Part shown: piece by piece, positions 72-21,643 of the stretch
Layout: every line of letters starts with the position of its first letter
Numbering within the stretch: the first letter of the stretch is position 1
DNA from: a virus
Length of the DNA stretch: 21,643 bases
Reading direction: 5' to 3' (one strand)
IMG/VR virus record: IMGVR_UViG_3300030104_000423
Location: 1 to 21,643 of that record
Program-made: the position numbers and the translations under genes
Notes under the pieces: model-generated
Told to the model about the DNA's origin: nothing
Seen by the model: only the letters and a program-made list of their open reading frames with translations
Databases searched by the model: none

Positions 72-302
72 ATGGCACAAAAAAAATCCAGAGCAAAAAC
101 CAAAGCAAAGTCCAAGGCAAAGCCAAAAGCAAAGTCTCGCGTAAACGAGGCAGGTAACTACACCAAACCAGAGATGCGTAAACGACAGTTTAACCGCATC
201 AAGGCTGGCAGCAAAGGTGGGAAGCCGGGTCAATGGTCTGCCCGAAAAGCACAGATGCTGGCTAAGGCTTATAAAGATGCAGGTGGTGGCTACAAGTCAT
301 GA
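72..302 (+). CDS. Small lysine-rich phage protein (76 aa)
   Basis: This is a very basic protein. Residues 4-22 form a low-complexity Lys/Ala/Ser tract similar in composition to histone H1 or bacterial Hc1 tails. Residues 24-76 look like a folded segment, with Tyr30, Pro33, a basic PEMRKR stretch, Gly/Lys turns at 46-53, Trp55 and a Gly-rich C-terminus. I recall similar short proteins in marine phage genomes near structural genes, without an established function. The gene overlaps the next one by four bases (ATGA), so the two are probably translationally coupled. It could be a minor head protein, a DNA-binding protein or a processing substrate, and the sequence does not decide. An AGG at 62-64 gives a weak ribosome site. 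The gene call is confident and the function is unknown. Confidence 0.8.
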   Translation: MAQKKSRAKTKAKSKAKPKAKSRVNEAGNYTKPEMRKRQFNRIKAGSKGGKPGQWSARKAQMLAKAYKDAGGGYKS

Positions 303-3862: not shown

Positions 3863-5650
3863 ATGGCAACTTATGTAAATGATTTAAGATTAAAAGAGAT
3901 CGCCACAGGAGATTCTTCTGGTACATGGGGGTCAGAAACGAATACCAATCTGGAGCTAATTGCAGAGGCATTGAGTTACGGAACACAGGATTGTTTTGGC
4001 AGTGACGCAAATGCAACGACTACTGTTGCTGACGGAGCGACAGATCCAGCCCGTTCTATTTATTTTAAAGTGACATCGTCTGCTACGCTTTCTACAACCA
4101 GAGAGCTAACTATCGCGCCAAACACAGTTTCCAGATTGATGTTTATTGAGAACGCAACAACAGGTTCTCAGATTATTACAATCAAACAAGGCTCTGGTGC
4201 AACGGTTAATATTGGTAACGGAGCAGTCAAGGCAGTGTACCTTGACGGGGCAGGTTCTGGAGCAGCGGTAGTTGATGCGCTTGTTGACTTAGATTTGACA
4301 GGCACTACCACCGCAGCAACCTTGACGGCTTCTGGTGTTATTACAGGAGCAACGCTTGAGGCGACTGCTGACACATCATCTGGTGACAACGCAGCCATAG
4401 GATTTACTTCTGCCGAAGGGATTATAATTACAGGACAGGGCAGCACCAATGACGTAACCATCAAAAATGACGCTGATGCTGACGTACTAACAATCGCAAC
4501 AGGTGGAACTAGCGTTGATATAGTAGGGGATGTTACAGCCTCCACCCTAAATGCAGATGGCGACACTGCTGCTGGCGACAATGCCTCGATGGGCTACACT
4601 GCCGCTGAAGGATTGATTCTTACAGGTCAGGGGTCAACTAATGACGTAACCATTAAGAATGATGCAGATGCTGATGTATTAACTATTGCAACAGGCGGTA
4701 CAAATGTAGACGTAGTTGGCGATCTTACCGCAGCGTGTTTTATACCTGATGGGGATACGTCCTCTGGTGATGCCGCAGCAATAGGCTACACAGCCGCTGA
4801 AGGTTTAATTCTTACAGGACAAGGCTCGACCAACGATGTAACAATCAAGAACGATGCAGATGCAGATGTATTGACGATAGCAACAGGTGGTACTAGCGTT
4901 GATATTGTTGGAGACTTGACGGCTGGAACATTAAATGCTGATGGTGATACTAGTGCTGGTGATAATGCTGCAATGGGATATACCGCTGCGGAAGGTTTAA
5001 TCCTCACTGGACAAGGTTCAACAAATGACGTAACGATTAAGAATGACGCTGATGCTGATGTTATTGAGATTCCAACTGGAACAACTAATGTCACAATAGC
5101 CGGTACGCTTGATGTGGGGGGAGCAAAAGCAAAAGTTGCAGGGAAAGAAACAATTTACGTTCCAGCAGCAGCGATGTACCCTAACTCAACGGCTGGCTGT
5201 GCTGATTTAACACAGGTTGAATTATCAAATGGGCCAGAAATAAAATGCCTTGACTTTGATGCTTCGTCTGATGAAAACGCTCAATTTACGGTTTGTTTTC
5301 CTAAATCATGGAACGAAGGCACAGTAACCTTCCAAGCGTTTTGGACAGTCACTGGAACAAACACAGGCACAGTTGCATGGGGATTATCTGGCGGTTCTAT
5401 GGCTGACGATGCTTCAATCAACACAGCGTTTGGAACAAACGTAGTTGCGACTGCAAAAGCGTTTTCTGGTACATCAAATGATATGACAGTCTCCGCAGAA
5501 TCAGGTGCTGTCACTATTGCAAACGCAGCGGTTGATACAATGACGTATTTCCAAATTATGAGAGATGTTTCAGCAGATAGTCAGTCAGGTGACGCAAGAC
5601 TATTAGGTATTAAGTTGTTCTTTACTACAGATGCGGCTAACGATGCGTGA
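3863..5650 (+). CDS. Tail fibre protein with four 64-residue repeats (595 aa)
   Basis: The N-terminal region (about 8-33) has LRLKEIATGDSSGTWGSETN, a start I recall from many marine phage fibres and presumably the virion-anchoring part. Residues 90-150 are beta-rich with short Thr/Gly turns. Residues 167-422 carry four tandem repeats of 64 residues, with a core of LILTGQGSTNDVTIKNDADA. The fourth repeat diverges at its end. The C-terminal third (about 423-595) is a different beta-rich domain with PAAAMYPN, Trp residues at 484, 493 and 505 or nearby, and a helix-poor end. This is probably the trimeric receptor-binding or shaft-tip domain. The gene starts at ATG 3863 with GAGG eight bases upstream. 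Fibre is confident; the receptor is unknown. Confidence 0.82.
   Translation: MATYVNDLRLKEIATGDSSGTWGSETNTNLELIAEALSYGTQDCFGSDANATTTVADGATDPARSIYFKVTSSATLSTTRELTIAPNTVSRLMFIENATTGSQIITIKQGSGATVNIGNGAVKAVYLDGAGSGAAVVDALVDLDLTGTTTAATLTASGVITGATLEATADTSSGDNAAIGFTSAEGIIITGQGSTNDVTIKNDADADVLTIATGGTSVDIVGDVTASTLNADGDTAAGDNASMGYTAAEGLILTGQGSTNDVTIKNDADADVLTIATGGTNVDVVGDLTAACFIPDGDTSSGDAAAIGYTAAEGLILTGQGSTNDVTIKNDADADVLTIATGGTSVDIVGDLTAGTLNADGDTSAGDNAAMGYTAAEGLILTGQGSTNDVTIKNDADADVIEIPTGTTNVTIAGTLDVGGAKAKVAGKETIYVPAAAMYPNSTAGCADLTQVELSNGPEIKCLDFDASSDENAQFTVCFPKSWNEGTVTFQAFWTVTGTNTGTVAWGLSGGSMADDASINTAFGTNVVATAKAFSGTSNDMTVSAESGAVTIANAAVDTMTYFQIMRDVSADSQSGDARLLGIKLFFTTDAANDA
4361..5128 (+). repeat. Four tandem 192-bp coding repeats in the fibre gene
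   Basis: Units begin at 4361, 4553, 4745 and 4937 in the same reading frame. The 30-residue core of units 2, 3 and 4 is essentially identical in protein, and unit 1 differs by a few conservative changes. The DNA differs at many third codon positions: the same Gly-Leu-Ile-Leu stretch, for example, is written with different codons in each unit. The last third of unit 4 has diverged. Confidence 0.9.
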
Positions 5651-6583: not shown

Positions 6584-6948
6584 GTCATTTTGCTAAAGTC
6601 AGGAACAATATTGTAGAAGCGGTGATTGTTGCAGATCAAAATTTTATTGACTCTTTGCCATCTGAGTCTGGCGTAACGTGGGTGCAAACATCGTACAACA
6701 CATATGGTGGTGTACATCATGCGCCTAATTCAAATACACCTGATGGCGGTGTAGCGTTACGAAAAAATTATGCTGGAGTTGGTCATACTTATGACTCTGT
6801 GAGAGATGCTTTTTATGCACCACAACCTTACCCAAGTTGGAGTTTGAATGAAACATCTTGCATTTGGGAACCTCCAGTGGCTCACCCGAATGACGGAAAA
6901 TCTTATGTATGGGATGAGACAAACAGACAATGGGTTGAAATGACCTAA
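6580..6948 (+). CDS. Fibre-region conserved phage protein, SHFAKVRNNIV family (122 aa)
   Basis: The sequence begins MSHFAKVRNNIVEAVIVADQ. It continues with a Trp-rich central part, NTYGGVHH, then ALRKNYAGVGHTYDSVRDAFY and PYPSWSLNETSCIWEPP, and ends VWDETNRQWVEMT. I recall this pattern from many cyanophage and marine phage genomes, always near fibres and without an experimental function. It is rich in Trp/Tyr/Asn, with no TM segment. The start overlaps the stop of the glycine-rich gene (ATGA) and its stop shares a base with the oxygenase start (TAATG), linking all three. A fibre-associated structural or assembly role is likely. The alternative is a carbohydrate-contacting protein, for which the sequence gives no direct evidence. 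Confidence 0.78.
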   Translation: MSHFAKVRNNIVEAVIVADQNFIDSLPSESGVTWVQTSYNTYGGVHHAPNSNTPDGGVALRKNYAGVGHTYDSVRDAFYAPQPYPSWSLNETSCIWEPPVAHPNDGKSYVWDETNRQWVEMT

Positions 6949-7589
6949 TGCATTTAATAAAAGAAAATATTAATAACGGCCCCACACCTGTTTTGCTTAC
7001 AAAAAATACACATCCGTCTTTTATTGGGAGTTGGATTCTAGATGATTTATCTATTTGTGATCGTTTAATTGATTACGTTGAAGATAAAGAGGCAAAAAAA
7101 CAAGGCGAAATAAATCGAGGAGTTGTTGGTCATCAAGATACAGGGAGAATAGCTGTTGAGGAAGAAACAAAAGTTTCTTTTGAAAGAAGATTGTCTTTTC
7201 AACATAAAGTTTGTTGTGACTATTCGATTGAATTACAAAAGTGTTTGAATCTTTACTTAAAAGATTACCCTTTTGCAGATAAGGTTGCAGCGTTCAATGA
7301 CGGTGTAGATCAAGGTAACGTGCAAAAGTACCCGAAAGGTGGTGGTTTTTTTAAGTATCACACCGAAAGGTCATCGCTGCTGTATGCCCACAGGCATCTT
7401 GTATATATGACATATCTTAACGATGTAACGGAAGGTGGTGAAACAGAATTTGCACATCAGAAAGTAAAAGTTAAACCGCAAAAAGGTCTCACATTAATAT
7501 GGCCTTGTGATTGGACTCATTATCACAGAGGCATTCCTTCACAGACACAAGTCAAATACATTGCAACAGGTTGGTATTGTTATTCTTAA
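6948..7589 (+). CDS. 2-oxoglutarate/Fe(II) oxygenase, prolyl-4-hydroxylase type (213 aa)
   Basis: This family hydroxylates its substrates, often prolyl residues, using O2 and 2-oxoglutarate with one Fe(II). The C-terminal double-stranded beta-helix shows the signature residues. KYHTE (137-140) supplies His138 and Glu140 as HxE instead of the more common HxD. YLNDVTEGGETEF (156-168) is the typical bridging motif, HYHRG (191-195) supplies His193, and Lys203 in QVKYIATGW fits the 2-oxoglutarate carboxylate ligand. The N-terminal part (1-120) is helix-rich, as in many phage and bacterial P4H-like enzymes. The length is usual. The TAATG junction with the fibre-region gene upstream suggests co-translation. 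The substrate is unknown and could be a viral or host protein. The HxE form is unusual but occurs in known members. Confidence 0.85.
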   Translation: MHLIKENINNGPTPVLLTKNTHPSFIGSWILDDLSICDRLIDYVEDKEAKKQGEINRGVVGHQDTGRIAVEEETKVSFERRLSFQHKVCCDYSIELQKCLNLYLKDYPFADKVAAFNDGVDQGNVQKYPKGGGFFKYHTERSSLLYAHRHLVYMTYLNDVTEGGETEFAHQKVKVKPQKGLTLIWPCDWTHYHRGIPSQTQVKYIATGWYCYS

Positions 7590-11152: not shown

Positions 11153-13000
11153 ATGGCTTTACGCAAAGTCAAATTTGCTCCGGGTGTCAACAAGGAAGGC
11201 ACTGACTACACAGCCGATCAGGGTTGGGTTGACTCTGATAAAATCAGATTCAGGCAGGGTAACCCAGAAAAGATCGGTGGTTGGCAAAAATACCTGTTAG
11301 ATTCCTTTGAAGGCGTTTGCAGATCCCTTCATGCGTGGTCAACTTTGTCGAGTGTAAAACATATCGGGGTTGGCACTAACCTAAAGTTTTATATCACAGA
11401 GGGTAACGCTTACAAAGACGTTACCCCTTTAAGGGTAACTACAAGCGCAGGTGATGTAACTTTTTCTGCAAGTAACGGGTCATCGACTCTTACCGTTACC
11501 GATTCAGGTCATGGTGCGGTTGTAAACGATTTTGTTACCTTCTCAGGTGCTGCAAGTTTAGGCGGGTTGATTATTGCCTCTGCTTTAAATCAGGAGTATC
11601 AGATTGCATCTGTTGCTGACGCAAACACTTATACCGTAACAGCAAAGGACACCAGTGGTAATACTCTTACCGCTAACGCCAGTGATTCTGGTAATGGTGG
11701 CGGTAGTGTTGTTGGTGCATATCAGATCAATACAGGACTTAATGCTTACGTTGCATCTCAAGGCTGGGGTGCAGGTGGCTGGGGGTTTGGTGCTTTTGGC
11801 TCTTCAACAGCAATTAGCTCTGGAAATCAATTAAGACTGTTTAGTCAGGATAACTTTGGGGAAGACCTCATCTTTAATGTCCGAGGTGGAGGTATTTTTT
11901 ATTCCGATGTTTCGGCAGGGTTGACCAATCGTGCAGTAAACATTACCGCTTTGAGCGGTGCATCCGATGCACCAACTGTTGCACTTCAGATAATGGTGTC
12001 TGATACAGATCAGCATGTAATTGCTTTTGGTTGTAACGCCATAGGTTCAAGCACTATAGACCCCTTGTTTGTTCGTTTTTCTACACAGGAAAGTGCAAGA
12101 GACTGGACACCAACAGCGACCAATACTGCTGGCGGTATCAGGATTAACTCTGGTTCTTTGATTGTCGGGGCGGTTCAGTCACGACAGGAAATAATTGTAT
12201 TTACTGATCGCAGTGTTCATTCGATGCGTTTTGTCGGGGGTGCTTTTGTTTTTGAGCTTTCCCTTATTTCAACCGATGTATCGATGATATCACCCAACGC
12301 GGGAATAGATGTTGGTGGTCAGGTGTATTTTATGGATGAAGGGGGCTTTTATGTTTATAACGGCTCTGTTCAAACGCTTCCATGCTCTGTTAAAAACCAT
12401 GTGTTTTCTAACTTAAATAAGAGTCAGGCGTATAAGGTGTTTGCCGCTGAGAACTCAGCGTACTCTGAAGTTACTTGGTTTTATCCAGTAGGCACTGGTA
12501 ATACAGAAATAACAAACTATGTGACGTATGATTACGCAGAAAACCTCTGGTCTATAGGCACTCTAGAAAGAGGTGCATGGAACGATTATGGGTCAGGCAC
12601 AGCACCACTTGCGGCTAGTGTTATTACCAGTTCAAACGAAAACTATTTATACGAGCATGAAACAGGTCATGATGATGACGGTTCTGCCATGACTGCTTTC
12701 ATAGAGTCGGGTGATCTTGAGATAAATGACGGTGAAAGTTTCATGTTTGTTAACAGGATAATACCAGACTTTACGTTCTCTGGTGCTGACCCAGAAGTTA
12801 ATTTAACCCTCAAAGGAAGAAATTATCCCTTGGAAACCACTACGACCCTGTCGTCTGCTACTGTCAACCAGTCAACAACAGAGTCACATGTGCGAGCAAG
12901 GGCCAGACATCCTGTGCTAAGAATCGAAAGTTCAGGCACTGGGTACGGCTGGCGGTTGGGTACGTTACGATTTCAGATCAGACAAGACGGTAGACGATAA
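11153..13000 (+). CDS. Large tail / stabilisation-type virion protein (615 aa)
   Basis: The N-terminus has VKFAPGVNKEGTDYTADQGW, and residues 28-45 contain DSDKIRFRQGNPEKIGGW. I recall this start from large phage structural proteins located after adaptors, and I consider a P22 gp10-like (tail hub/stabilisation) role by position. The rest is beta-rich. It includes a Trp-Gly motif around residues 204-213 (GWGAGGWGFGAFG), a repeat-rich part with alternating Thr/Ser/Val (about 100-180), a VHSMRFVGGAFVFELSLI segment near residue 350, and NLWSIGTLERGAW at about 464. A C-terminal region has LTLKGRNYPLE and a basic end. There is no TM segment. The gene starts three bases after the previous stop. Structural is confident and gp10-like is tentative. 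Confidence 0.65.
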   Translation: MALRKVKFAPGVNKEGTDYTADQGWVDSDKIRFRQGNPEKIGGWQKYLLDSFEGVCRSLHAWSTLSSVKHIGVGTNLKFYITEGNAYKDVTPLRVTTSAGDVTFSASNGSSTLTVTDSGHGAVVNDFVTFSGAASLGGLIIASALNQEYQIASVADANTYTVTAKDTSGNTLTANASDSGNGGGSVVGAYQINTGLNAYVASQGWGAGGWGFGAFGSSTAISSGNQLRLFSQDNFGEDLIFNVRGGGIFYSDVSAGLTNRAVNITALSGASDAPTVALQIMVSDTDQHVIAFGCNAIGSSTIDPLFVRFSTQESARDWTPTATNTAGGIRINSGSLIVGAVQSRQEIIVFTDRSVHSMRFVGGAFVFELSLISTDVSMISPNAGIDVGGQVYFMDEGGFYVYNGSVQTLPCSVKNHVFSNLNKSQAYKVFAAENSAYSEVTWFYPVGTGNTEITNYVTYDYAENLWSIGTLERGAWNDYGSGTAPLAASVITSSNENYLYEHETGHDDDGSAMTAFIESGDLEINDGESFMFVNRIIPDFTFSGADPEVNLTLKGRNYPLETTTTLSSATVNQSTTESHVRARARHPVLRIESSGTGYGWRLGTLRFQIRQDGRR

Positions 13001-13520: not shown

Positions 13521-15812
13521 ATGAATTACTCAAACAACCAGATGATGTATCAAAGACCCATGCAGGGAATGGCTAACCAGTTAGCTAATCAGGGTCGATA
13601 TGGCGATAGCATGATGGTGCATATGAACCCCGTAGAGGTCGCTGGGCTGGCTTCTTTGTCGCCTACAGGGTCTTTAACCAGAAATCCCATGACAGGGCAA
13701 CCAGAGGCGTTTCTGCCCTTTCTAGCACCTCTTCTTGGTAGTGCAGCAGGCACAGCTTTGTTACCAGCTTTAAGCCCGGCTTTAGCTGGAGCGATTGGTT
13801 CAGGCGTTGCAACCACTCTACAATCGGGTGACCTTAAACAAGGCATTATGTCTGGACTGACTGGTTATGGTCTTGGATCGGCTATTGGGAAAGGGGCTGA
13901 GGCAGTTGCTGGTGTTCCAGATGCACAGGCAGCAGTTGATGTTGCCAAACAAGGCGTAGAGGCAGCAACCCTTGATCAATTAAGAATAAACCCGCAGTTA
14001 GATTTGGAAGCAGCAAAAACGGCATTAGGTACGTCTACTCCGTTGCCTTTAGGTCAGCCGACTGGTGTATTACCGCCAACAACGCCTTTTGATGCAAACA
14101 CTGGTCAAATTCTTGGGACAGGCGCGGAAGGTCAGCTTATAAAAGCTCAACAAATAGCTGAAGGAAAAAATATATTCTCAGAGGGTGTTCTGCCTGAAGC
14201 AGCCAAAGCTGCTATCCAGCCTGCCAACCTTGCCATGATTGGTGTGGGTGAGGGCAGTCGGGCGCAAGAACAAATGCTGCAAGACTTTGAAGACCAACAA
14301 AATCAGATGATGCAAGCAAATGAAGAAAAGCGATTGCAGGCATACTCTGATATGAATCGTGCAAAGAAGTTAGCAGCAGAACGGTATGACAGGCCATTTA
14401 TTCCTCTTAATCCAAATGACAATCCGTATGCAGGCACTTATTACGGGGGCGGTATTACTTCCGTTGATCCAAGCGGTTACATGAGAAGCAGAAGAAACTT
14501 GGAAAATATGGGTGTAGAGCCTTTACGGATGTTTGCGGGAGGGCCATTTCCCGTTGATTATTTTAATAGATTGAGCGGTGGTGCTTCTGACACGCCATCC
14601 AACGTACAAGACAGGATAAGGCCATCAAGGGTTGTTACAGAAGAAGAGCTTGCAACAGAAGCGGCAGATTTAGTTGCTCAAGGCAAAGATCCAAGAGCAG
14701 GGTTCCGTAGTGAAATACAGTATTTTAGAGAGCCTTTACCAGATCCAGAAGATCCAGAAAATCCAACCCCAGATCCAGAACCCGATCCTCCTTTTGACCC
14801 CGCGCCTTTTGTTGGGTACAACCCTAAAGGTGGAATGATTCCTCAAGGTGGCAGAAAAGGCACTAACTTTTATCAAGAACAACAACAGAACAAGACTATG
14901 CCAGCAGGTGTGACAAGCGGTGCCATGTCAAGCATGGCTGGGCTGCCTCAGCTTATGGGCTTACAGGGAGCGCAAAACCTGCCTATGTCTACGGCTTCTC
15001 CAGTCGAATCACAAACACAAGATTACTCTAATCTTGTGATGGGAGATGATTCTGTAACTAATCTGGAGGAGATTAGAAAGCGCATTGCCGCCATGAATCT
15101 TCCGTTTGCAGACGGGGGTAAAACCGACTTTCCTGACTACAACAAAGACGGAGAAATTACTCAAGCTGACATCTTGATGGGAAGAGGTGTTATTGAGAAA
15201 CAGGAAGGTGGTCGGACAGAAGACGGTGTCATGACAACCATTATTGACGAAAAAGGTAACGAGCTTATGGAAGTCATAGACAAAGATGGCAATGTTACCT
15301 ATCGCAAAAAAACAGAGGAAGAAATAAGAAGAGGCAGTGACGATAAAAGACCTGCATCTCCGCTAAGTATGGAGTTCCAAGAAGGCGGTATAACCAGTCA
15401 AGACCCTCTCATAACAGCCACTATGCAAGCCTTGATGGGTAGAACCTCTCCTGAAGAAATGGACGGGATAATAGAAGCGTTTGTTGCAAAGTACGGCACT
15501 GAAGCATTCCAAGAGCTTAGGACGCAAGTGTTACAATCAATTGTTCCCAACGCACAAACAGAAGGACAGATCAAAGGCCAAGGTGGTGGAATGGAAGATA
15601 ACATCGATGGCATGATCGGTGCAGAGCAGCCCGTTGCGGTGTCGCCTAATGAATATATTGTGGCCGCTGATGTTGTTTCTGGTCTGGGTGACGGCAATTC
15701 AGATGCAGGTGCAGCCGCTCTTGATGATATGATGGACAGGGTCAGAATGACCAGAACAGGCACTGCACAACAACCCCAACCTCTTGATAAGCGTCAGGTA
15801 ATGCCAGCATGA
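13521..15812 (+). CDS. Large virion / ejection-type protein with amphipathic segments and EF-hand-like loop (763 aa)
   Basis: Residues 64-98 (FLAPLLGSAAGTALLPALSP then a Gly/Ala run) and about 108-125 are hydrophobic Gly/Ala-rich and may insert into membranes, as expected of proteins ejected with the DNA. Residues 407-429 form a Pro/Asp/Glu linker. Residues 539-550 fit an EF-hand or dockerin-like loop (Asp539, Asn541, Asp543, Gly544, Asp550). The C-terminal part has SPNEYIVAADVVSGLGDGNS and DAGAAALDDMMDRVR, a pattern I recall from marine phage structural proteins. Helical, Gln-rich stretches lie near 245-290. There is no signal peptide. The ATG follows the preceding stop directly. An internal virion or scaffold-like role is most likely. 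Confidence 0.65.
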   Translation: MNYSNNQMMYQRPMQGMANQLANQGRYGDSMMVHMNPVEVAGLASLSPTGSLTRNPMTGQPEAFLPFLAPLLGSAAGTALLPALSPALAGAIGSGVATTLQSGDLKQGIMSGLTGYGLGSAIGKGAEAVAGVPDAQAAVDVAKQGVEAATLDQLRINPQLDLEAAKTALGTSTPLPLGQPTGVLPPTTPFDANTGQILGTGAEGQLIKAQQIAEGKNIFSEGVLPEAAKAAIQPANLAMIGVGEGSRAQEQMLQDFEDQQNQMMQANEEKRLQAYSDMNRAKKLAAERYDRPFIPLNPNDNPYAGTYYGGGITSVDPSGYMRSRRNLENMGVEPLRMFAGGPFPVDYFNRLSGGASDTPSNVQDRIRPSRVVTEEELATEAADLVAQGKDPRAGFRSEIQYFREPLPDPEDPENPTPDPEPDPPFDPAPFVGYNPKGGMIPQGGRKGTNFYQEQQQNKTMPAGVTSGAMSSMAGLPQLMGLQGAQNLPMSTASPVESQTQDYSNLVMGDDSVTNLEEIRKRIAAMNLPFADGGKTDFPDYNKDGEITQADILMGRGVIEKQEGGRTEDGVMTTIIDEKGNELMEVIDKDGNVTYRKKTEEEIRRGSDDKRPASPLSMEFQEGGITSQDPLITATMQALMGRTSPEEMDGIIEAFVAKYGTEAFQELRTQVLQSIVPNAQTEGQIKGQGGGMEDNIDGMIGAEQPVAVSPNEYIVAADVVSGLGDGNSDAGAAALDDMMDRVRMTRTGTAQQPQPLDKRQVMPA

Positions 15813-16309
15813 ATGAGCCTGCTAGAAACATCATAAGGGATATCTCAAGAGAACCAAGGGTTAAGAAAAAGAACGCACCTAGAAAGGTTACCCACACTAT
15901 AACGATAGCACCAACAACTTATATAAGGGCTTTGTGGCCTGACGTAAGCGAGCAATTACAAAGAGCGGTAGCAAGATCAAATGGCAGATGGACTCTTGAA
16001 GACCTTTATCGTGCAATAGAATCAGGTTATCAGCAGTTGTGGCTGGCATTTGATGACGATAAGATGATTGATGGTGTTGGCACTACGGAGATACTTGATT
16101 ACCCACAAGGGAAGATGCTTGCAATACAGTTTCTTGGTGGAGACAAGTTCAATGACTGGGTTTGGGAAATGCTTGAAAAGTTTAACAGCTTTGCCAAGGA
16201 TTCTGGGTGTGTAGGCATTGAGGCTACAGCAAGACAGGGATTCTGGAAATGGCTGTCACAGGATGATTTTAAACAGTCGTACATTGTTTACGAAAAGAGG
16301 TTTGATTAA
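15809..16309 (+). CDS. GNAT-like acyltransferase-fold phage protein (166 aa)
   Basis: After a basic N-terminus (1-35) the sequence reads like the small N-acetyltransferase fold often found between large phage virion genes. It has RAIESGYQQLWLAFDDD, then GVGTTEILDYPQGKMLAIQFLGGDKFNDWVWEML in consecutive stretches, then FAKDSGCVGIEATARQGFWKWL and a final KQSYIVYEKRF strand. The usual acetyl-CoA loop (Arg/Gln-x-x-Gly-x-Gly/Ala) is not clearly seen, so enzyme activity is uncertain and the fold could be used structurally. The start overlaps the previous stop (ATGA), and its stop shares a base with the next ATG. The family resemblance is by recall of the pattern. Confidence 0.6.
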   Translation: MNEPARNIIRDISREPRVKKKNAPRKVTHTITIAPTTYIRALWPDVSEQLQRAVARSNGRWTLEDLYRAIESGYQQLWLAFDDDKMIDGVGTTEILDYPQGKMLAIQFLGGDKFNDWVWEMLEKFNSFAKDSGCVGIEATARQGFWKWLSQDDFKQSYIVYEKRFD

Positions 16310-18177
16310 TGGGTAAAAGTTCAGGGCCATCGGGGCCGCAGCAAGTACAGCAGACTACCACTAATTTACCAGCCTATGCAGAGCCGTTTTATAGGAATCT
16401 TTTAGAGCGAGCCACGTTTGAAAGCGAAAGACCCCTTGAAACATATCCGGGTCAAAGGCTGGCAGATTTTGATCCTTATGAACAACAGGCCATGTCAGGC
16501 ATTGCCGATATGGCTTATGCTGGTGACCCCATACAGATGCAACAAGCATCGGAACTGGCTGCGGCAGTCGGTTATCAAGACCCAAATCAAGCTATGCAGA
16601 TAGCAAATGCCTATCGACCTTCTGCTCAGTATTCTGGCTATTTTGCTGGCGATATTGATTCTGGTTACGATGCAGGTGCTTTAGATAATCAGTTTCGTGC
16701 TGATCAAGCTGGGCAGGGTTATCAGGCGGGTCAGAGAGGGGTTGGTTATGACCCGATTCAGTTTGACCAGTTCTATGACCCAAGGGACAGACAGTCAGGT
16801 TACGATCCAATAGAGTATCAAAGCGGTTTTGATGCAAGGACATTCGATCCGGGCTATTTTGCCGAGCAACTGGGTCAGGACTACACCGCAAAGGAACTTC
16901 AAAGTCAATTTGACGCTGGATCGGTTGCAACAGACCCTGATGTTTTAGCGCAGTACATGAGTCCTTATGCTCAACTTGTCACAGATATTGAAAGACGAGA
17001 GGCAATCGAAGCAGGCGAAAAAGCCAAAACAGATATAGGTCTTCAAGCGGCTGGTGCTGGAGGTCTTGGCGGCTACAGGGAAGCAATCATGCTTTCTGAA
17101 GCAGATAAAAATATCCAACAACAACTTGCAGATATCCAAGCAACAGGCGGTCAGAGGGCTTATGAGCAGGCTCTGGCAGCATATGAAGCGGATCGTGGTG
17201 CAAGAGTTCAGGAGGAGCAGTTAAGACAGCAGGCGTTTGTTACTAGCGAGGAAGCTAGAAGGGCGCAACAACAGCTTGCTGTGGATACCTTCCGTGCAGG
17301 CGAGGATGCCAAGCAACAAGCTGCAAGACTGGGCATGTCTGCTCAAGAACAGGAAGATGCCTCAAGAAGGGCAGAAGAACAATTTGCTCAGTCAGCGTTT
17401 GAAATGACTGACAGAGGCAGACAGCAAGCAGAACAGTTTGATCAACGTGCTTTTGAGTTTAGCGAGCAGGCTCGACAACAAGCAGCCCAAATGGGCATGA
17501 CGGTTCAACAGCAGCAGGATGCGGCTAACCGTGCTTTAGAGCAGTTCCAACAAGACACATTTGCACAAAATGAACAGCTTAGACAAGCTCAAGACCAGCT
17601 TGGCCTTAGTCGGTTCCAAGCAAATGAACAAGCAAGGCTTGCACAACAACAAGAAGACAGGGCAGTTTTCCAAGCTAGTGAATCAGCGAGGCAACAAGCG
17701 GCTTCTCTTGGCCTTAATGCTCAAGAGATACAGGAACGTGTCAATCAGGCAGAAAACGCAGCTAGAATGGAAGCAAGGGCGTTAAACAACCAGTACATGT
17801 TAAACCAAGCTAATCTTGCTATGGGAGCCTTGGGAGAAGACAGGGCGGCTAGGGATCAGATTCTTTCTGCTTCCCAGCAGTTAGGCAACCTTGGCGGTCA
17901 AGACCAGAGGATGGATTTTGAGAGACTGCGTAACCTGCAAGCCGCTGGTCAGAATTATCGAGGACTTGATCAAAGGTCTCTTGATATGGGTTACGAAGAC
18001 TTCCTGAGACAACAAGCGTTTGGTCAGGAACAGCTTGCTTTCTTTAGTAACATTTTGCAGGGTTTACCTGTTCAGCCCGGTTCCACCCAAGCCAGTTTTG
18101 GGCCTAGACCGTCTACAGCCCAACAATTACTTGGTGCTGGAATTGGTGGCGTGGGATTGTATAACGCACTGACCTAA
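16309..18177 (+). CDS. Large Gln-rich virion protein with 9- and 18-residue repeats (622 aa)
   Basis: The N-terminal part (LPAYAEPFYRNLLERATFES and GQRLADFDPYEQQAMSGIA, about 20-65) is one I recall in marine phage structural proteins. Residues 108-206 are eleven nonapeptide repeats with an aromatic residue at position 4. Residues 213-240 contain a Tyr/Pro/Arg segment, QYMSPYAQLVTDIERREAIEAG, and residues 284-499 are about twelve 18-residue Gln/Ala/Glu-rich units predicted to be one very long helix. The end (about 540-622) contains YRGLDQRSLDMGYEDFLRQQ and a short Gly-rich tail. There is no signal or TM segment. It is flanked by other internal-type proteins, so a role in the ejected core or tail conduit is likely but unproven. 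Confidence 0.68.
   Translation: MGKSSGPSGPQQVQQTTTNLPAYAEPFYRNLLERATFESERPLETYPGQRLADFDPYEQQAMSGIADMAYAGDPIQMQQASELAAAVGYQDPNQAMQIANAYRPSAQYSGYFAGDIDSGYDAGALDNQFRADQAGQGYQAGQRGVGYDPIQFDQFYDPRDRQSGYDPIEYQSGFDARTFDPGYFAEQLGQDYTAKELQSQFDAGSVATDPDVLAQYMSPYAQLVTDIERREAIEAGEKAKTDIGLQAAGAGGLGGYREAIMLSEADKNIQQQLADIQATGGQRAYEQALAAYEADRGARVQEEQLRQQAFVTSEEARRAQQQLAVDTFRAGEDAKQQAARLGMSAQEQEDASRRAEEQFAQSAFEMTDRGRQQAEQFDQRAFEFSEQARQQAAQMGMTVQQQQDAANRALEQFQQDTFAQNEQLRQAQDQLGLSRFQANEQARLAQQQEDRAVFQASESARQQAASLGLNAQEIQERVNQAENAARMEARALNNQYMLNQANLAMGALGEDRAARDQILSASQQLGNLGGQDQRMDFERLRNLQAAGQNYRGLDQRSLDMGYEDFLRQQAFGQEQLAFFSNILQGLPVQPGSTQASFGPRPSTAQQLLGAGIGGVGLYNALT
16630..16926 (+). repeat. Eleven 9-residue (27-bp) aromatic repeats
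   Basis: Residues 108-206 of the 622-residue protein split without gaps into eleven nonapeptides. Examples are YSGYFAGDI, DSGYDAGAL, GVGYDPIQF, QSGYDPIEY, QSGFDARTF, DPGYFAEQL and QSQFDAGSV. Position 4 is Tyr or Phe in every unit, position 6 is mostly Ala or Pro, and position 9 is often hydrophobic. The codons vary between units. Confidence 0.85.
17158..17805 (+). repeat. About twelve 18-residue (54-bp) Gln-rich helical repeats
   Basis: Residues 284-499 of the 622-residue protein split into eighteen-residue units in constant register, for instance EEQLRQQAFVTSEEARRA, EEQFAQSAFEMTDRGRQQ, AEQFDQRAFEFSEQARQQ and QQQEDRAVFQASESARQQ. Positions 4 and 9 are mostly hydrophobic or aromatic, and positions 15-16 are mostly small/basic (Ala-Arg). 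Three units carry a Leu/Met-Gly variant (AARLGM, AAQMGM, AASLGL). A thirteenth, weaker unit may follow. Confidence 0.85.
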
Positions 18178-18193: not shown

Positions 18194-19972
18194 ATGAACA
18201 TAATTGAGCAAGAAGATATCATCAAGGGTTTGCCAGACGATGCTTTGCAAAGAGAAGCAAGAATGCCTAGTGGTCAGGTTCCCCAGTTTCTTGTTGTTTC
18301 CGAAATACAAAGACGCACCGATATGCGAAAGCGGTTTGAGGCTAACCAGCCTCAACAAAACATGTCTGTTGCAGAACAGGTTGTACAGGAAGGTATTGGT
18401 GCTGTTCAACCAACGATGATGGCTTCAAGCGGAGGCAGAACACCTTTCACTGCAAAGTATGCTAACGGTGGGATTTCTGGGAGTGGATTGCCTCAAATAG
18501 GTAGCAATTTTGTAAGAAATCTTACATTAGATCCATATGGTAATCCAGTGAATATTGATCCTTCAACAGAAGCAGAATTTATTCTGAGAAATCGTGGTTA
18601 TGATGTCGGCCCATTAGGTATTCCTATTTATGAGTCAACTAGGGACAATGAGCGGTCAGCAAATATAAGAGATTTAATATCAAGGGATCAAACCACTCGC
18701 TTTGACTTACCCTTAGATGCCTACGCCACAGGAAGAGCAGAGACACCCATAGATCGGGGGATCGACACCCTACAAAATATTGATATTGACTTATCTAATC
18801 CTTTATCAAGAGCAATGACGGATGCAAACAAAAATGCTCCAACCAGTTTTGATGAGTCTGTTCTTGGTAGAGGGACTTCAAGAGCTTTAGATTTTTTGGG
18901 AAATCTTAGCCTCCCTGAAACTGATTACAGTAAATTCCCATATACCCGCGCCCGACAAGAAGGAGACCTTTTGTTTTCTAACATAGTGGGTGCTGGATCT
19001 CTTCAGGGTTTGTTTGACGGTAGTGATGTTTTGAACCCTCCGGATGAAATAACTTTCGCAGCAACCTCTGACACGCCTAGAGGCGATGATACCCCTACTG
19101 CATTAACGAGCGCACAAATTCTTTCAAATGCTAGGGAAAATATTGAAAATGCAAGAAATCCTCAAAATGTATCAAGTGCGGAACTTTTAGCTCAGATCCA
19201 GCCCAATCAAACTGACAAAACTGCTACAGACTTTGAAGCTCCAACAGTCGTTGACGATCCAGTCACAAACGCAGAAAAACTGCTTGATGAAATTAATCCA
19301 AATATTGACACCACAGTTATTACTGGCCCAACTGTTGCGGATGCTGCAAAAACAGATCCTGTTTCTATAGCCGCCAAACAGTACGCTGATCTGCTTGGTG
19401 GAGAAAAGAACGACAAGATGCGTAACGCCTTAATGTTAGCAAGTCTGGGAGCAGGTATTGCTAAGGGTGATACCGCTGGTGGTTTACAGCAAGCAGCTAA
19501 CGTAGCTGCGTCTTACCAACAGAAAGAAATCGATAGAGCAGAGAAAGGTCTGGATCGTGCTATCAAGAGAGCAGACACTGAAGCTATGCAGGATCTTAAA
19601 AGGCAAGAAGTCGAAGGTAGAATTGGATATTATGACGTTTTGAAACTTAATGCACAAAATGAGCAGACTAGATTGGCTCAAGCCGCAGACCTCAAAGCCG
19701 AAGAAAGAGATGCCAGTTATAGACAAACAGCAACTCGTATTTTAAATCAAGGATTAGAACAAGCACTGAAAAATGTCCCTAAATATAAAACTATGACTGC
19801 CGCACAACAAGCAGCCGTTAGAAGAAATATTCTTAACCAAACAGCCGATATCACTTTGAGATATGAAGGCTCTGCTTATGCTCCATTTTTAGATCAATTA
19901 ATCAATAGTATGGCTAGTGCTACAGGCGGTAAGTCTCGCTCAAGTTCATACACAGTAATAGAAAAGAGATAA
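18194..19972 (+). CDS. Large virion / internal protein with LPDDALQREARMPSGQVPQF start (592 aa)
   Basis: The start reads DIIKGLPDDALQREARMPSG, then PQFLVVSEIQRRTDMRKRFEA. I recall this opening in many environmental phages and some prophages, next to the other large virion genes. Residues 75-110 and 200-330 are low-complexity, Asp/Thr/Asn-rich and probably disordered. The C-terminal third (about 395-570) is helical. It includes a Gly/Ala run (ALMLASLGAGIAKGDTAGGL, about 412-431) that may be membrane-active, followed by coiled-coil-like sequence with many Glu/Lys/Arg/Gln. The end is Ser-rich. The gene starts after a 16-base gap with AAGAGG before the ATG. The function is inferred from location: an internal or ejected virion component. 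Confidence 0.65.
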   Translation: MNIIEQEDIIKGLPDDALQREARMPSGQVPQFLVVSEIQRRTDMRKRFEANQPQQNMSVAEQVVQEGIGAVQPTMMASSGGRTPFTAKYANGGISGSGLPQIGSNFVRNLTLDPYGNPVNIDPSTEAEFILRNRGYDVGPLGIPIYESTRDNERSANIRDLISRDQTTRFDLPLDAYATGRAETPIDRGIDTLQNIDIDLSNPLSRAMTDANKNAPTSFDESVLGRGTSRALDFLGNLSLPETDYSKFPYTRARQEGDLLFSNIVGAGSLQGLFDGSDVLNPPDEITFAATSDTPRGDDTPTALTSAQILSNARENIENARNPQNVSSAELLAQIQPNQTDKTATDFEAPTVVDDPVTNAEKLLDEINPNIDTTVITGPTVADAAKTDPVSIAAKQYADLLGGEKNDKMRNALMLASLGAGIAKGDTAGGLQQAANVAASYQQKEIDRAEKGLDRAIKRADTEAMQDLKRQEVEGRIGYYDVLKLNAQNEQTRLAQAADLKAEERDASYRQTATRILNQGLEQALKNVPKYKTMTAAQQAAVRRNILNQTADITLRYEGSAYAPFLDQLINSMASATGGKSRSSSYTVIEKR

Positions 19973-19975
19973 TAA

Positions 19976-21643
19976 ATGCCTACTTTTGAGGTAACAGATG
20001 AGCTAGGTAGAACTCTGGTTCTGGAGGGTGATACCCCTCCAACCGATGCGGATCTAGATTTGTTGTTTGCTGATTATGATACATATCCTCAAGAGCTAGG
20101 TCAGCAACAAACGGCAATACCAGAGCCAGAACCCGATCTCTTTGCCGATCAAAGAACTGCCACAGGTCAAGCCTTTGAAACAATCAAAGGGGTGGGTCGT
20201 GGCTTTGGCGGTTCTTTTCTGACAGCAGCGGAAGGTCTCGCAGAGTTAGCAGATGCTGGCACAAACGCACTGGGTTATGAAGACCTTATAGACAGTGGCG
20301 ATGAGAATGCCCTTGTCAAGGCTGCAAGGTCTGGACAGGAGTCCATACAGGACGCTATAGGCGCAGATAGAGCTTATCAGGACACATGGCTTACAAAGTT
20401 CGGAGAAGGGCTAGGATCGTTTGCTTCGTTCTTTACACCCGCTGGGGTGGCGAAAGGTGTTGGTCTCACAGGAAAGGCTTATACAGCCGCCACAAGAGGG
20501 GCTGCGGTTCCGTTAGCGGTAGGTGTAGGTTCTGGTGAGCAAGCTCAAAGAATAGCATTAGCTAGGGAGCAAGGCATTGATGTCACCGAAGGTCAAGAAG
20601 ATTTGTCAATTCTTGGTGGCGGTTTTGTCGGGTTGTCCGAATTAGCATCTGTTTCTAGTTTGCTAGGCAGAATAGACCGATCAAAAGCAGGTGATGGATT
20701 TATACAGGAAATTAAAAGGCGAATTGGATCGGCTTTACAGTCAGGTCTTGAAGAAGGTTTTCAGGAAGTTCTTGCTAATATTGCTCAAGATGCAATTGAG
20801 CGTGGTGTTTATAACGAAAACCTTCCATCAGACATGTCGGTTAAAGGTATACTCACATCGGATGAATTTACGATTGGCGGGGCCAGTGGTTTTGCAGTTG
20901 ACCTTCTCCTTAACAGCATAGGAAATAAGAGGAACAGGTTTGCCAATGACGCAGAGCGTGATTTTGAGGCAGGTTTGCGTGATAAAGAAGCACAAGAAAT
21001 AGCCGAAATCGAACAAAATGTAGCAGAGTTTGAAACAGCAGAACAGGAAGGACTAGCGGCAGCAGAGTCGGTACAGAACCTTGCCAGATCATTGCAGTTA
21101 AACGAACCCACCATTATACCCTCCCAGCTTCAGTTAGAGGACTGGAACGATCTAGCTGTAGCCAGCAGTGCTGGCACAACGGTTGGCCCAAGAAACATTG
21201 CTAACGAAGCAGAAGCTCTTACCGATTATGGTAATCAAATCCAAGCCAATCTCAACAGTCAGAGAAAGTTCCCTAAATCTGGTCGATTTACTCGCGGTGT
21301 AGGTCAGGGAACCCAAGTGTTTTATGACCCACAGGATGGGTCAGACATGATTCCCGTATCACAAGAACTGGCAACGCCTAATCAGGCTGGTCAGCTTGTT
21401 GGTATTCTGGAGGAGAAAAGACAAGACAGGGCTATTAACAGTCAGATCAGTCGCATTATAAGAAACAACGAGACAGAGCTAGACCAGCCAAGGGTGAACA
21501 CCTTAGCTGCATGGGGCAGGTCTGCAATGAACCCCAAGGTCGGCCTTATACCCAGAACAAGGGTTGACTCAGTATTCAATACAACCGATATATCGAAAGG
21601 TTATCAGGAAAACTTAACGTCTCAGGAAGCGATTGATGCTAAA
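19976..21643 (+). CDS. Very large virion / injected-type protein, 3' end missing (at least 556 aa)
   Basis: The frame opens at ATG 19976, four bases after the previous stop, and runs without a stop to the window end, giving 556 codons. It begins MPTFEVTDELGRTLVLEGDT, a short beta-type start I recall from very large phage proteins. Residues 145-190 are Gly/Ala-rich and hydrophobic (GLGSFASFFTPAGVAKGVG and following) and may be membrane-interacting. Another helix-rich stretch (about 238-270) contains ALQSGLEEGFQEVLANIAQD. About 320-370 is Glu/Ala-rich with coiled-coil character. No catalytic motif is seen in the part present. The usual downstream part could hold an enzyme domain, but that lies outside the window. 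An ejection or polyvalent protein is likely. Confidence 0.7.
   Translation, partial: MPTFEVTDELGRTLVLEGDTPPTDADLDLLFADYDTYPQELGQQQTAIPEPEPDLFADQRTATGQAFETIKGVGRGFGGSFLTAAEGLAELADAGTNALGYEDLIDSGDENALVKAARSGQESIQDAIGADRAYQDTWLTKFGEGLGSFASFFTPAGVAKGVGLTGKAYTAATRGAAVPLAVGVGSGEQAQRIALAREQGIDVTEGQEDLSILGGGFVGLSELASVSSLLGRIDRSKAGDGFIQEIKRRIGSALQSGLEEGFQEVLANIAQDAIERGVYNENLPSDMSVKGILTSDEFTIGGASGFAVDLLLNSIGNKRNRFANDAERDFEAGLRDKEAQEIAEIEQNVAEFETAEQEGLAAAESVQNLARSLQLNEPTIIPSQLQLEDWNDLAVASSAGTTVGPRNIANEAEALTDYGNQIQANLNSQRKFPKSGRFTRGVGQGTQVFYDPQDGSDMIPVSQELATPNQAGQLVGILEEKRQDRAINSQISRIIRNNETELDQPRVNTLAAWGRSAMNPKVGLIPRTRVDSVFNTTDISKGYQENLTSQEAIDAK

What the first reader, a model, noticed from the sequence alone, without database searches (positions are those of the whole stretch)
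17158..17805. Twelve 18-residue helical repeats predicting a long, nearly straight rod
Residues 284-499 form units of exactly 18 residues. Eighteen residues are five alpha-helical turns at 3.6 per turn, and 18 also equals 11 plus 7, a hendecad plus a heptad. Such a period gives a nearly straight amphipathic stripe rather than a supercoiled heptad coil. At 1.5 angstrom per residue, 216 residues would span roughly 320 angstrom, comparable to a periplasm-spanning distance. A long ejected rod or conduit element is an inference.
Basis: partly seen in the sequence, partly recalled or inferred. Interest (0 to 1): 0.68.

Follow-up and report, generated by a model that had tools for sequence, protein, structure and literature searches.

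The report
Phage ejection-protein rod with paired repeats
A marine virus protein probably fired into its bacterial host contains a long helical rod whose 18-residue units are matched one for one, in mirrored order, by 9-residue units earlier in the same chain, so relatives lengthen or shorten the rod in exact paired steps of about 27 angstroms.

Summary
The 18-residue repeat is real and far beyond chance. Upstream in the same protein (residues ~108-206) lies a second array of 9-residue units (consensus xxGYxAGxx). In 67 of 74 relatives the 18-mer array differs by exact multiples of 18 (0 to 23 units), and the number of 9-mers changes with it one for one (independent contrasts r=0.999, slope 0.50, without one array-less outlier; r=0.988 with it). 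A held-out set of 54 relatives, reaching 26 units, obeys the same rule (r=0.997). Insertions lie at mirrored positions in the two arrays (Spearman 0.95; parallel alternative 0.08), and unit types match in that register in the longest proteins. Simplest reading: an antiparallel hairpin in which each extended 9-mer (about three polyproline-II turns) lies along one 18-mer (five alpha-helical turns), both ~27 Å. The known precedent is the streptococcal antigen I/II stalk. Gene order and a weak PHROG hit place the protein among podovirus ejection proteins; homology to T7 gp14 or P22 gp7 was not detected. AlphaFold2 was low-confidence and inconclusive. "Periplasm-spanning" is unproven; the longest rods (~700 Å) look too long for that alone.

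The parts
16309..18177 (+). 622-aa repeat protein: N-terminal domain, 9-mer array, linker, 18-mer array, C-terminal domain
   Evidence: ORF; PHROG 4287 'DNA ejection protein' over residues 437-617, E=2.6e-5
16309..16629 (+). Conserved N-terminal domain (residues 1-107), NLPAYAEPFY...PGQRLADFDP
   Evidence: Conserved across relatives and shared with array-less forms
16630..16926 (+). First array: about eleven 9-residue units (residues 108-206), consensus D-S/P-G-Y-Q-A-G-D-L/F; hydrophobicity period 3
   Evidence: Unit parse, consensus and harmonics; length changes in 9-residue steps
16927..17154 (+). Linker with YMSPY anchor and GGLGGYRE (residues 207-282); the turn of the proposed hairpin
   Evidence: YMSPY-to-DIQ spacing is 59 residues wherever both motifs were found; insert positions in both arrays mirror about it
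17155..17748 (+). Second array: eleven 18-residue helical units (residues 283-480), paired one for one with the 9-mers
17749..17802 (+). Degenerate twelfth 18-residue unit (AENAARMEARALNNQYML), next to the conserved C-terminal domain
   Evidence: corresponding residues in relatives
17803..18174 (+). Conserved C-terminal domain (DMGYEDFLRQQAF, ending in hydrophobic GAGIGGVGLYNAL)
15809..16309 (+). 166-aa protein immediately upstream; equivalent position to CRP-902 gp35 (GNAT) and, in size and order, to T7 gp13
   Evidence: Synteny; CRP-902 gp35 matches PHROG acetyltransferase; no family hit for the window copy itself
18194..19972 (+). 592-aa protein, candidate second ejection protein (T7 gp15-like position)
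   Evidence: Synteny only; no family hit
19976..21643 (+). Start of a giant protein cut by the window end; 2664 aa or more in L001, 2803 aa in MinM2, with Pfam LPD38
11153..13000 (+). 615-aa podovirus tail nozzle-type protein
   Evidence: PHROG 3287 E=1.7e-72; PDB 9nwi_Y E=3.8e-16 and 8zkm/8zkk nozzle proteins E=0.0014

Best explanation
The protein is a podovirus ejection-type protein carrying a length-adjustable rod. SHOWN: two repeat arrays in one chain, of 9-residue and 18-residue units, change number together one for one, and the matched units run in opposite order about a fixed linker. INFERRED, fold: the 18-mer array is a straight alpha-helix (5 turns, 18 x 1.5 = 27 angstrom per unit); the 9-mer array is an extended strand, most likely polyproline-II-like (3 turns, 9 x ~3.0-3.1 = 27-28 angstrom per unit), folded back along the helix in strict register. 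Both units have whole numbers of turns in the same rise, so every unit pair repeats identically and the rod grows in 27 angstrom steps (about 300 angstrom here). INFERRED, function: it sits in the gene position of the small first ejection protein (T7 gp14, P22 gp7), is released ahead of the giant protein and DNA, and its rod sets the reach or length of an oligomeric conduit or scaffold.
For: Periodicity. 67 of 74 at exact multiples of 18. Lockstep: independent contrasts r=0.988 for all, 0.9993 (slope 0.502) without L097; 98%-identical pairs differ by 27/54, 9/18 and 54/108. Held-out 54 members: r=0.9967, range up to 26 units. Mirrored insert positions: Spearman 0.955 antiparallel versus 0.078 parallel over 51 related pairs; L050/L026 carries two separate mirrored inserts. 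Unit-type matching inside single long proteins: p<=0.003 in the seven longest, and weaker in parallel order (e.g. the three-unit super-repeat of L069). A second lineage (CRP-902 group) has 12-mers tracking 18-mers. 9-mer hydrophobicity power concentrated at period 3.0 (0.59), as PPII predicts. Array-less relatives keep the same N- and C-terminal domains. Gene order and LPD38 giant protein; PHROG 'DNA ejection protein'. Precedent for an alpha/PPII rod: antigen I/II A3VP1 (PMC3707005, read).
Against: AlphaFold2 did not show a strand packed on the helix; both models were low-confidence. No detectable profile homology to T7 gp14 or P22 gp7. The 9-mers contain little proline (5%), and a 9-residue profile has few harmonics. 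The within-protein unit-matching test is not significant for the window itself (9 units, r=-0.14, p=0.84) nor for several other members. Exceptions: L097 has no 18-mers and a P/R-rich stretch instead of 9-mers; CRP-902 itself has one fewer 12-mer than expected. The 51 insert pairs collapse to about 13 event classes, so they are not 51 independent events.
Confidence: 0.66

Rival explanations
1. Same paired rod, but intermolecular: the 9-mer strand of one subunit lies on the helix of a neighbouring subunit in an oligomeric tube (domain swap), so the rod is a built-up wall rather than a self-contained hairpin.
For: All the coupling data fit equally well; T7, DEV and N4 ejection proteins act as oligomeric rings or tubes (PMC8954989, PMC10925440, PMC12633501); monomer AlphaFold2 did not close a hairpin.
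Against: None specific; a constant 59-residue linker spacing at the mirror point makes the intramolecular hairpin simpler.
Confidence: 0.22
2. Both arrays bind side by side along a third filament (another ejection protein or DNA) and track its spacing, without touching each other directly.
For: Equal axial rise would also give lockstep and mirrored register.
Against: Downstream neighbour length does not track unit number (rho 0.20, p=0.13) and the upstream one only weakly (rho 0.35, p=0.009). Unit-by-unit matching of sequence types suggests direct contact.
Confidence: 0.08
3. The protein is not ejected but is a permanent virion rod (tail needle, fibre or internal core scaffold) whose length sets a virion dimension.
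For: The P22 tail needle gene is near its ejection genes; no infection experiment exists for this family.
Against: Gene order small protein - this - mid-size - giant LPD38 protein parallels T7 13-14-15-16 and P22 14-7-20-16; PHROG names the family DNA ejection protein.
Confidence: 0.15
4. The lockstep is a by-product of shared ancestry or an alignment artefact, with no structural coupling.
For: Relatives are related, and arrays are hard to align.
Against: Lengths were measured between conserved anchors, not by aligning repeats; independent contrasts r=0.988-0.999; at least 35 unit-number changes on the tree; held-out test; no single simple DNA event would change two separate arrays in mirrored order.
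Confidence: 0.02

Closest known systems
Streptococcal antigen I/II stalk (A-repeats alpha-helix, P-repeats PPII; A3VP1 structure, Larson et al. 2010, described in PMC3707005)
   Same: Two separate repeat arrays in one chain, one alpha-helical and one extended, lying together as a long thin rod; about 2:1 residue ratio (82 and 39 residues per repeat, from my own knowledge)
   Different: Unrelated sequence and host; there the helical array comes first; large, proline-rich repeats; a cell-wall adhesin rather than a phage protein. Here the units are 18 and 9 residues, and their number varies 0-26 in lockstep
T7 gp14 / P22 gp7 / DEV gp73 / N4 gp52 (small first ejection proteins)
   Same: Gene position next to a mid-size and a large ejection protein in podoviruses
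   Different: About 150-240 aa and nearly constant in size (PMC8954989); no repeat arrays of this kind; no detectable profile homology to T7 gp14 or P22 gp7 here; DEV and N4 proteins were not compared by sequence
PHROG 4287 'DNA ejection protein' (MinM2, HTVC023P gp81)
   Same: The N- and C-terminal domains; short members match the profile over most of its length
   Different: The short members lack both arrays; the window protein matches only through its C-terminal part
Periscope proteins (variable-length bacterial surface rods, PMC9704523)
   Same: Rod length varied by changing the number of tandem units
   Different: Single arrays on bacterial surface proteins; nothing paired between two arrays, as far as I know

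Membership tests
PHROG 4287 DNA ejection protein family | Profile match | tested here: met
   Window E=2.6e-5 (residues 437-617); short relatives 2.1e-19, 4e-15 and 2.3e-10; short and long forms align at 100% hhalign probability
T7 gp14-like / P22 gp7-like ejection proteins | Sequence homology | tested here: not met
   hhalign probability 0.5-2% against T7 gp14, P22 gp7 and a P22 gp7 family alignment, about the same as the best shuffled controls
T7 gp14-like / P22 gp7-like ejection proteins | Position before mid-size and large ejection genes, after a ~140-170 aa gene, in a podovirus | tested here: met
T7 gp14-like / P22 gp7-like ejection proteins | Ejected into host and membrane pore-forming | not testable with these tools
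   Needs experiment
Alpha/PPII hybrid rod (antigen I/II type) | Two arrays with matched unit number and matched rise | tested here: met
   Lockstep 9:18 residues, slope 0.50; mirrored register; the rise itself is calculated, not measured
Alpha/PPII hybrid rod (antigen I/II type) | Observed alpha and PPII backbone packed together | tested here: inconclusive
   AlphaFold2 pLDDT 43.6 and 52.6, first array unmodelled
Antigen I/II family | Sequence homology to solved structures | tested here: not met
   Profile search of PDB chains gave no antigen I/II hit up to E=1
Heptad or hendecad coiled coil | 3.5 or 3.67 residue periodicity | tested here: not met
   Peak at 3.58-3.60; nothing at 3.5 or 3.667

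The most novel reading that the evidence does not exclude
A previously undescribed kind of viral protein: an ejected, length-adjustable rod or conduit built of paired helix-strand units, whose reach evolves in 27 angstrom steps (0 to ~700 angstrom), constrained by mirrored co-evolution of two distant repeat arrays in one chain, perhaps matching the depth of the host surface.
Probability: 0.4. Interest if true: 0.9.

Novelty: new variant of a known kind. Interest (0 to 1): 0.82.

Why it matters
Two repeat arrays in one protein that gain and lose units together in mirrored order, in well over 100 distinct viruses, read out a 3D contact map from sequence lengths alone. It gives a directly testable model of how a podovirus could set the reach of its ejection apparatus, in a group related to very abundant marine phages (HTVC023P-type, PMC9599517, PMC10149686). 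It also offers a natural modular rod with a fixed step of about 27 Å.

Tried and rejected
Pfam (no hit for the protein) and PDB sequence search (chance-level only). AlphaFold2 twice: low confidence, so no fold search was run on those models. Homology to T7 gp14, T7 gp13 and P22 gp7 by hhalign: not detected. Neighbour length as a co-varying ruler: not supported. Mutual information between units at other shifts is also above its null, because related sequences share unit order; the within-protein test and the insert-position test were used instead. Parallel pairing rejected. Literature: no paper found describing paired co-varying arrays in phages (open-access library only, keyword search). A paper on the MinM2-like phage Pag-Yong1 was not held.

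Full report
OBSERVATION. The claimed region is residues 284-499 of a 622-aa ORF at 16309-18177. The 18-residue period is real: autocorrelation peaks at 18, 36 and 54, all far outside shuffles, and the hydrophobicity spectrum peaks at 3.58-3.60 residues with nothing at 3.5 or 3.67. Units are only about 30% identical and the DNA is not called as a tandem repeat. The twelfth unit is degenerate, so eleven variable units is the better count.

RELATIVES. IMG/VR scans with the protein, then with an alignment, found 395 matching places, of which the best 80 were kept. Short relatives (about 290-330 aa) turned up with the MinM2 protein as query. Profile alignment shows the short form is the same N- and C-terminal protein without either array. 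Isolated phages with members are MinM2, HTVC023P (gp81, short) and CRP-902 (gp34).

THE SECOND ARRAY. In the alignments a second array is visible before the linker: 9-residue units, roughly D-S/P-G-Y-Q-A-G-D-L/F, residues ~108-206 in the window protein. Lengths were measured between conserved anchors (LPxYAxPY, YMSPY, DMGY), without aligning repeats. In 67 of 74 distinct members the YMSPY-DMGY distance differs from the window's by an exact multiple of 18. The LPxYAxPY-YMSPY distance changes by 9 residues for every 18. Independent contrasts on a tree of the conserved parts give r=0.988; without the outlier L097, which has no 18-mers, r=0.9993 and slope 0.502. Pairs 98% identical in the conserved parts differ by 27/54, 9/18 and 54/108 residues. 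The tree requires at least 35 changes of unit number.

HELD-OUT TEST. Two further scans with other query alignments gave 54 distinct members not used to form the rule. They obey it: r=0.9967 (0.9987 for members with two or more units), with nearly constant offsets inside each lineage and arrays up to 26 units (L218, 1034 aa). The zero point had been taken from the short form beforehand, so the offsets (mostly -0.67 or -1.17 unit) reflect N-terminal domain length differences between lineages, which is an interpretation.

MIRRORED REGISTER. In closely related pairs with one insertion in each array, the distance of the insertion from the linker, counted in units, is the same on both sides: Spearman 0.955, mean difference 0.32 unit, sd 0.51. 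The parallel alternative gives 0.078 (51 pairs collapsing to about 13 event classes). One pair (L050/L026) has two separate insertions in each array at mirrored places. Inside single long proteins, 9-mers that resemble each other sit opposite 18-mers that resemble each other (p<=0.003 in the seven longest); parallel order scores much lower in these. In L069 the repeating triplet GQGYRAGQR / DPGYNAGDL / QGGYNAGAF lies opposite AQEQFxQ / AQQQEERG / EAARLGL units. The test is not significant for the window protein itself (9 units) nor for several other members.

A SECOND LINEAGE. In the CRP-902 group the first array has 12-residue units. Taking L110 as reference, L118 and L120 differ by -36/-54, L115 by -12/-18, L114 by -15/-24, L111 by +5/+4, L119 by 0/0; CRP-902 itself is one 12-mer short. 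This supports unit-for-unit pairing with a different first-array unit, on few sequences.

MECHANISM. Eighteen residues of alpha-helix are 5 turns and 27 Å. Nine residues of PPII are 3 turns and 27-28 Å. Equal rise, whole turns, 1:1 counts and mirrored order together point to an extended strand lying back along a helix. The 9-mer hydrophobicity profile has most power at period 3.0 (0.59), next 2.25 (0.30), which favours PPII over a regular beta strand; this is suggestive only. The hybrid alpha/PPII rod has a solved precedent, antigen I/II A3VP1 (PMC3707005, citing Larson et al. 2010). AlphaFold2 with 16 and 62 sequences gave pLDDT 43.6 and 52.6 and left the 9-mer array unstructured, which is inconclusive; an oligomer may be needed.

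SURROUNDINGS AND ROLE. The order is conserved across most loci: 615-aa nozzle-type protein, a roughly 620-950 aa protein, ~170 aa, this protein, roughly 520-960 aa, then a long ORF that is giant where it could be followed. The nozzle protein matches solved podovirus nozzles. The equivalent of the ~170-aa gene in CRP-902 is an acetyltransferase-type protein. The giant (2664 aa or more in L001) carries LPD38. T7 has 13-14-15-16 and P22 has 14-7-20-16 in the same size order. PHROG calls the family a DNA ejection protein. Profile comparison found no homology to T7 gp14 or P22 gp7, so I say 'occupies that position and may work like it', not 'is one'. Known gp14-like proteins vary less than 30% in size (PMC8954989); this family varies more than threefold, mostly by paired repeats.

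LIMITS. Function, ejection and the strand-helix contact are inferred. With 0-26 units (0-700 Å) the rod cannot simply equal one periplasm depth. Neighbour gene lengths do not track rod length well.

Noticed in passing
window 4428-5061: Tandem DNA repeat of 192 bp, 3.3 copies (72% matches), inside the 595-aa ORF 3863-5650 (PHROG 31104, unknown function), perhaps a tail fibre.
   Followed up: no
window 83-136: Short 12/24-bp tandem repeat AAAATCCAAAGC at the start of ORF 72-302.
   Followed up: no
window 6948-7589: 2OG-Fe(II) oxygenase-type gene among structural and lysis genes (PHROG 61, E=1.1e-38).
   Followed up: no
L109:8044-9486: Roseobacter phage CRP-902 gp34 has a 12-residue first array (ELLGQYQGATRD) with 18-mers; it is one 12-mer short against its 96%-identical relative L110, an exception to the pairing rule.
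   Followed up: partly
L097:5296-6657: A family member with no 18-mers and a long Pro/Arg/Gln-rich stretch in place of the 9-mers, the only gross outlier.
   Followed up: partly
L007 / OQ594354, OL906435, PP438419: Three phage records of exactly 65,014 bases with the same hit, reported for Synechococcus and for Planktothrix-type hosts; host assignment may be uncertain.
   Followed up: no
L007:14087-22498: The 2803-aa giant protein is annotated 'RelA/SpoT' but matches LPD38 and phage families of unknown function, plus a weak virion RNA polymerase profile hit.
   Followed up: partly
L104-L107: Bacterial and archaeal MAGs (Rickettsiales, Maricaulis, Chloroflexi, Euryarchaeota) hold contigs with this phage gene, probably binned phage contigs.
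   Followed up: no
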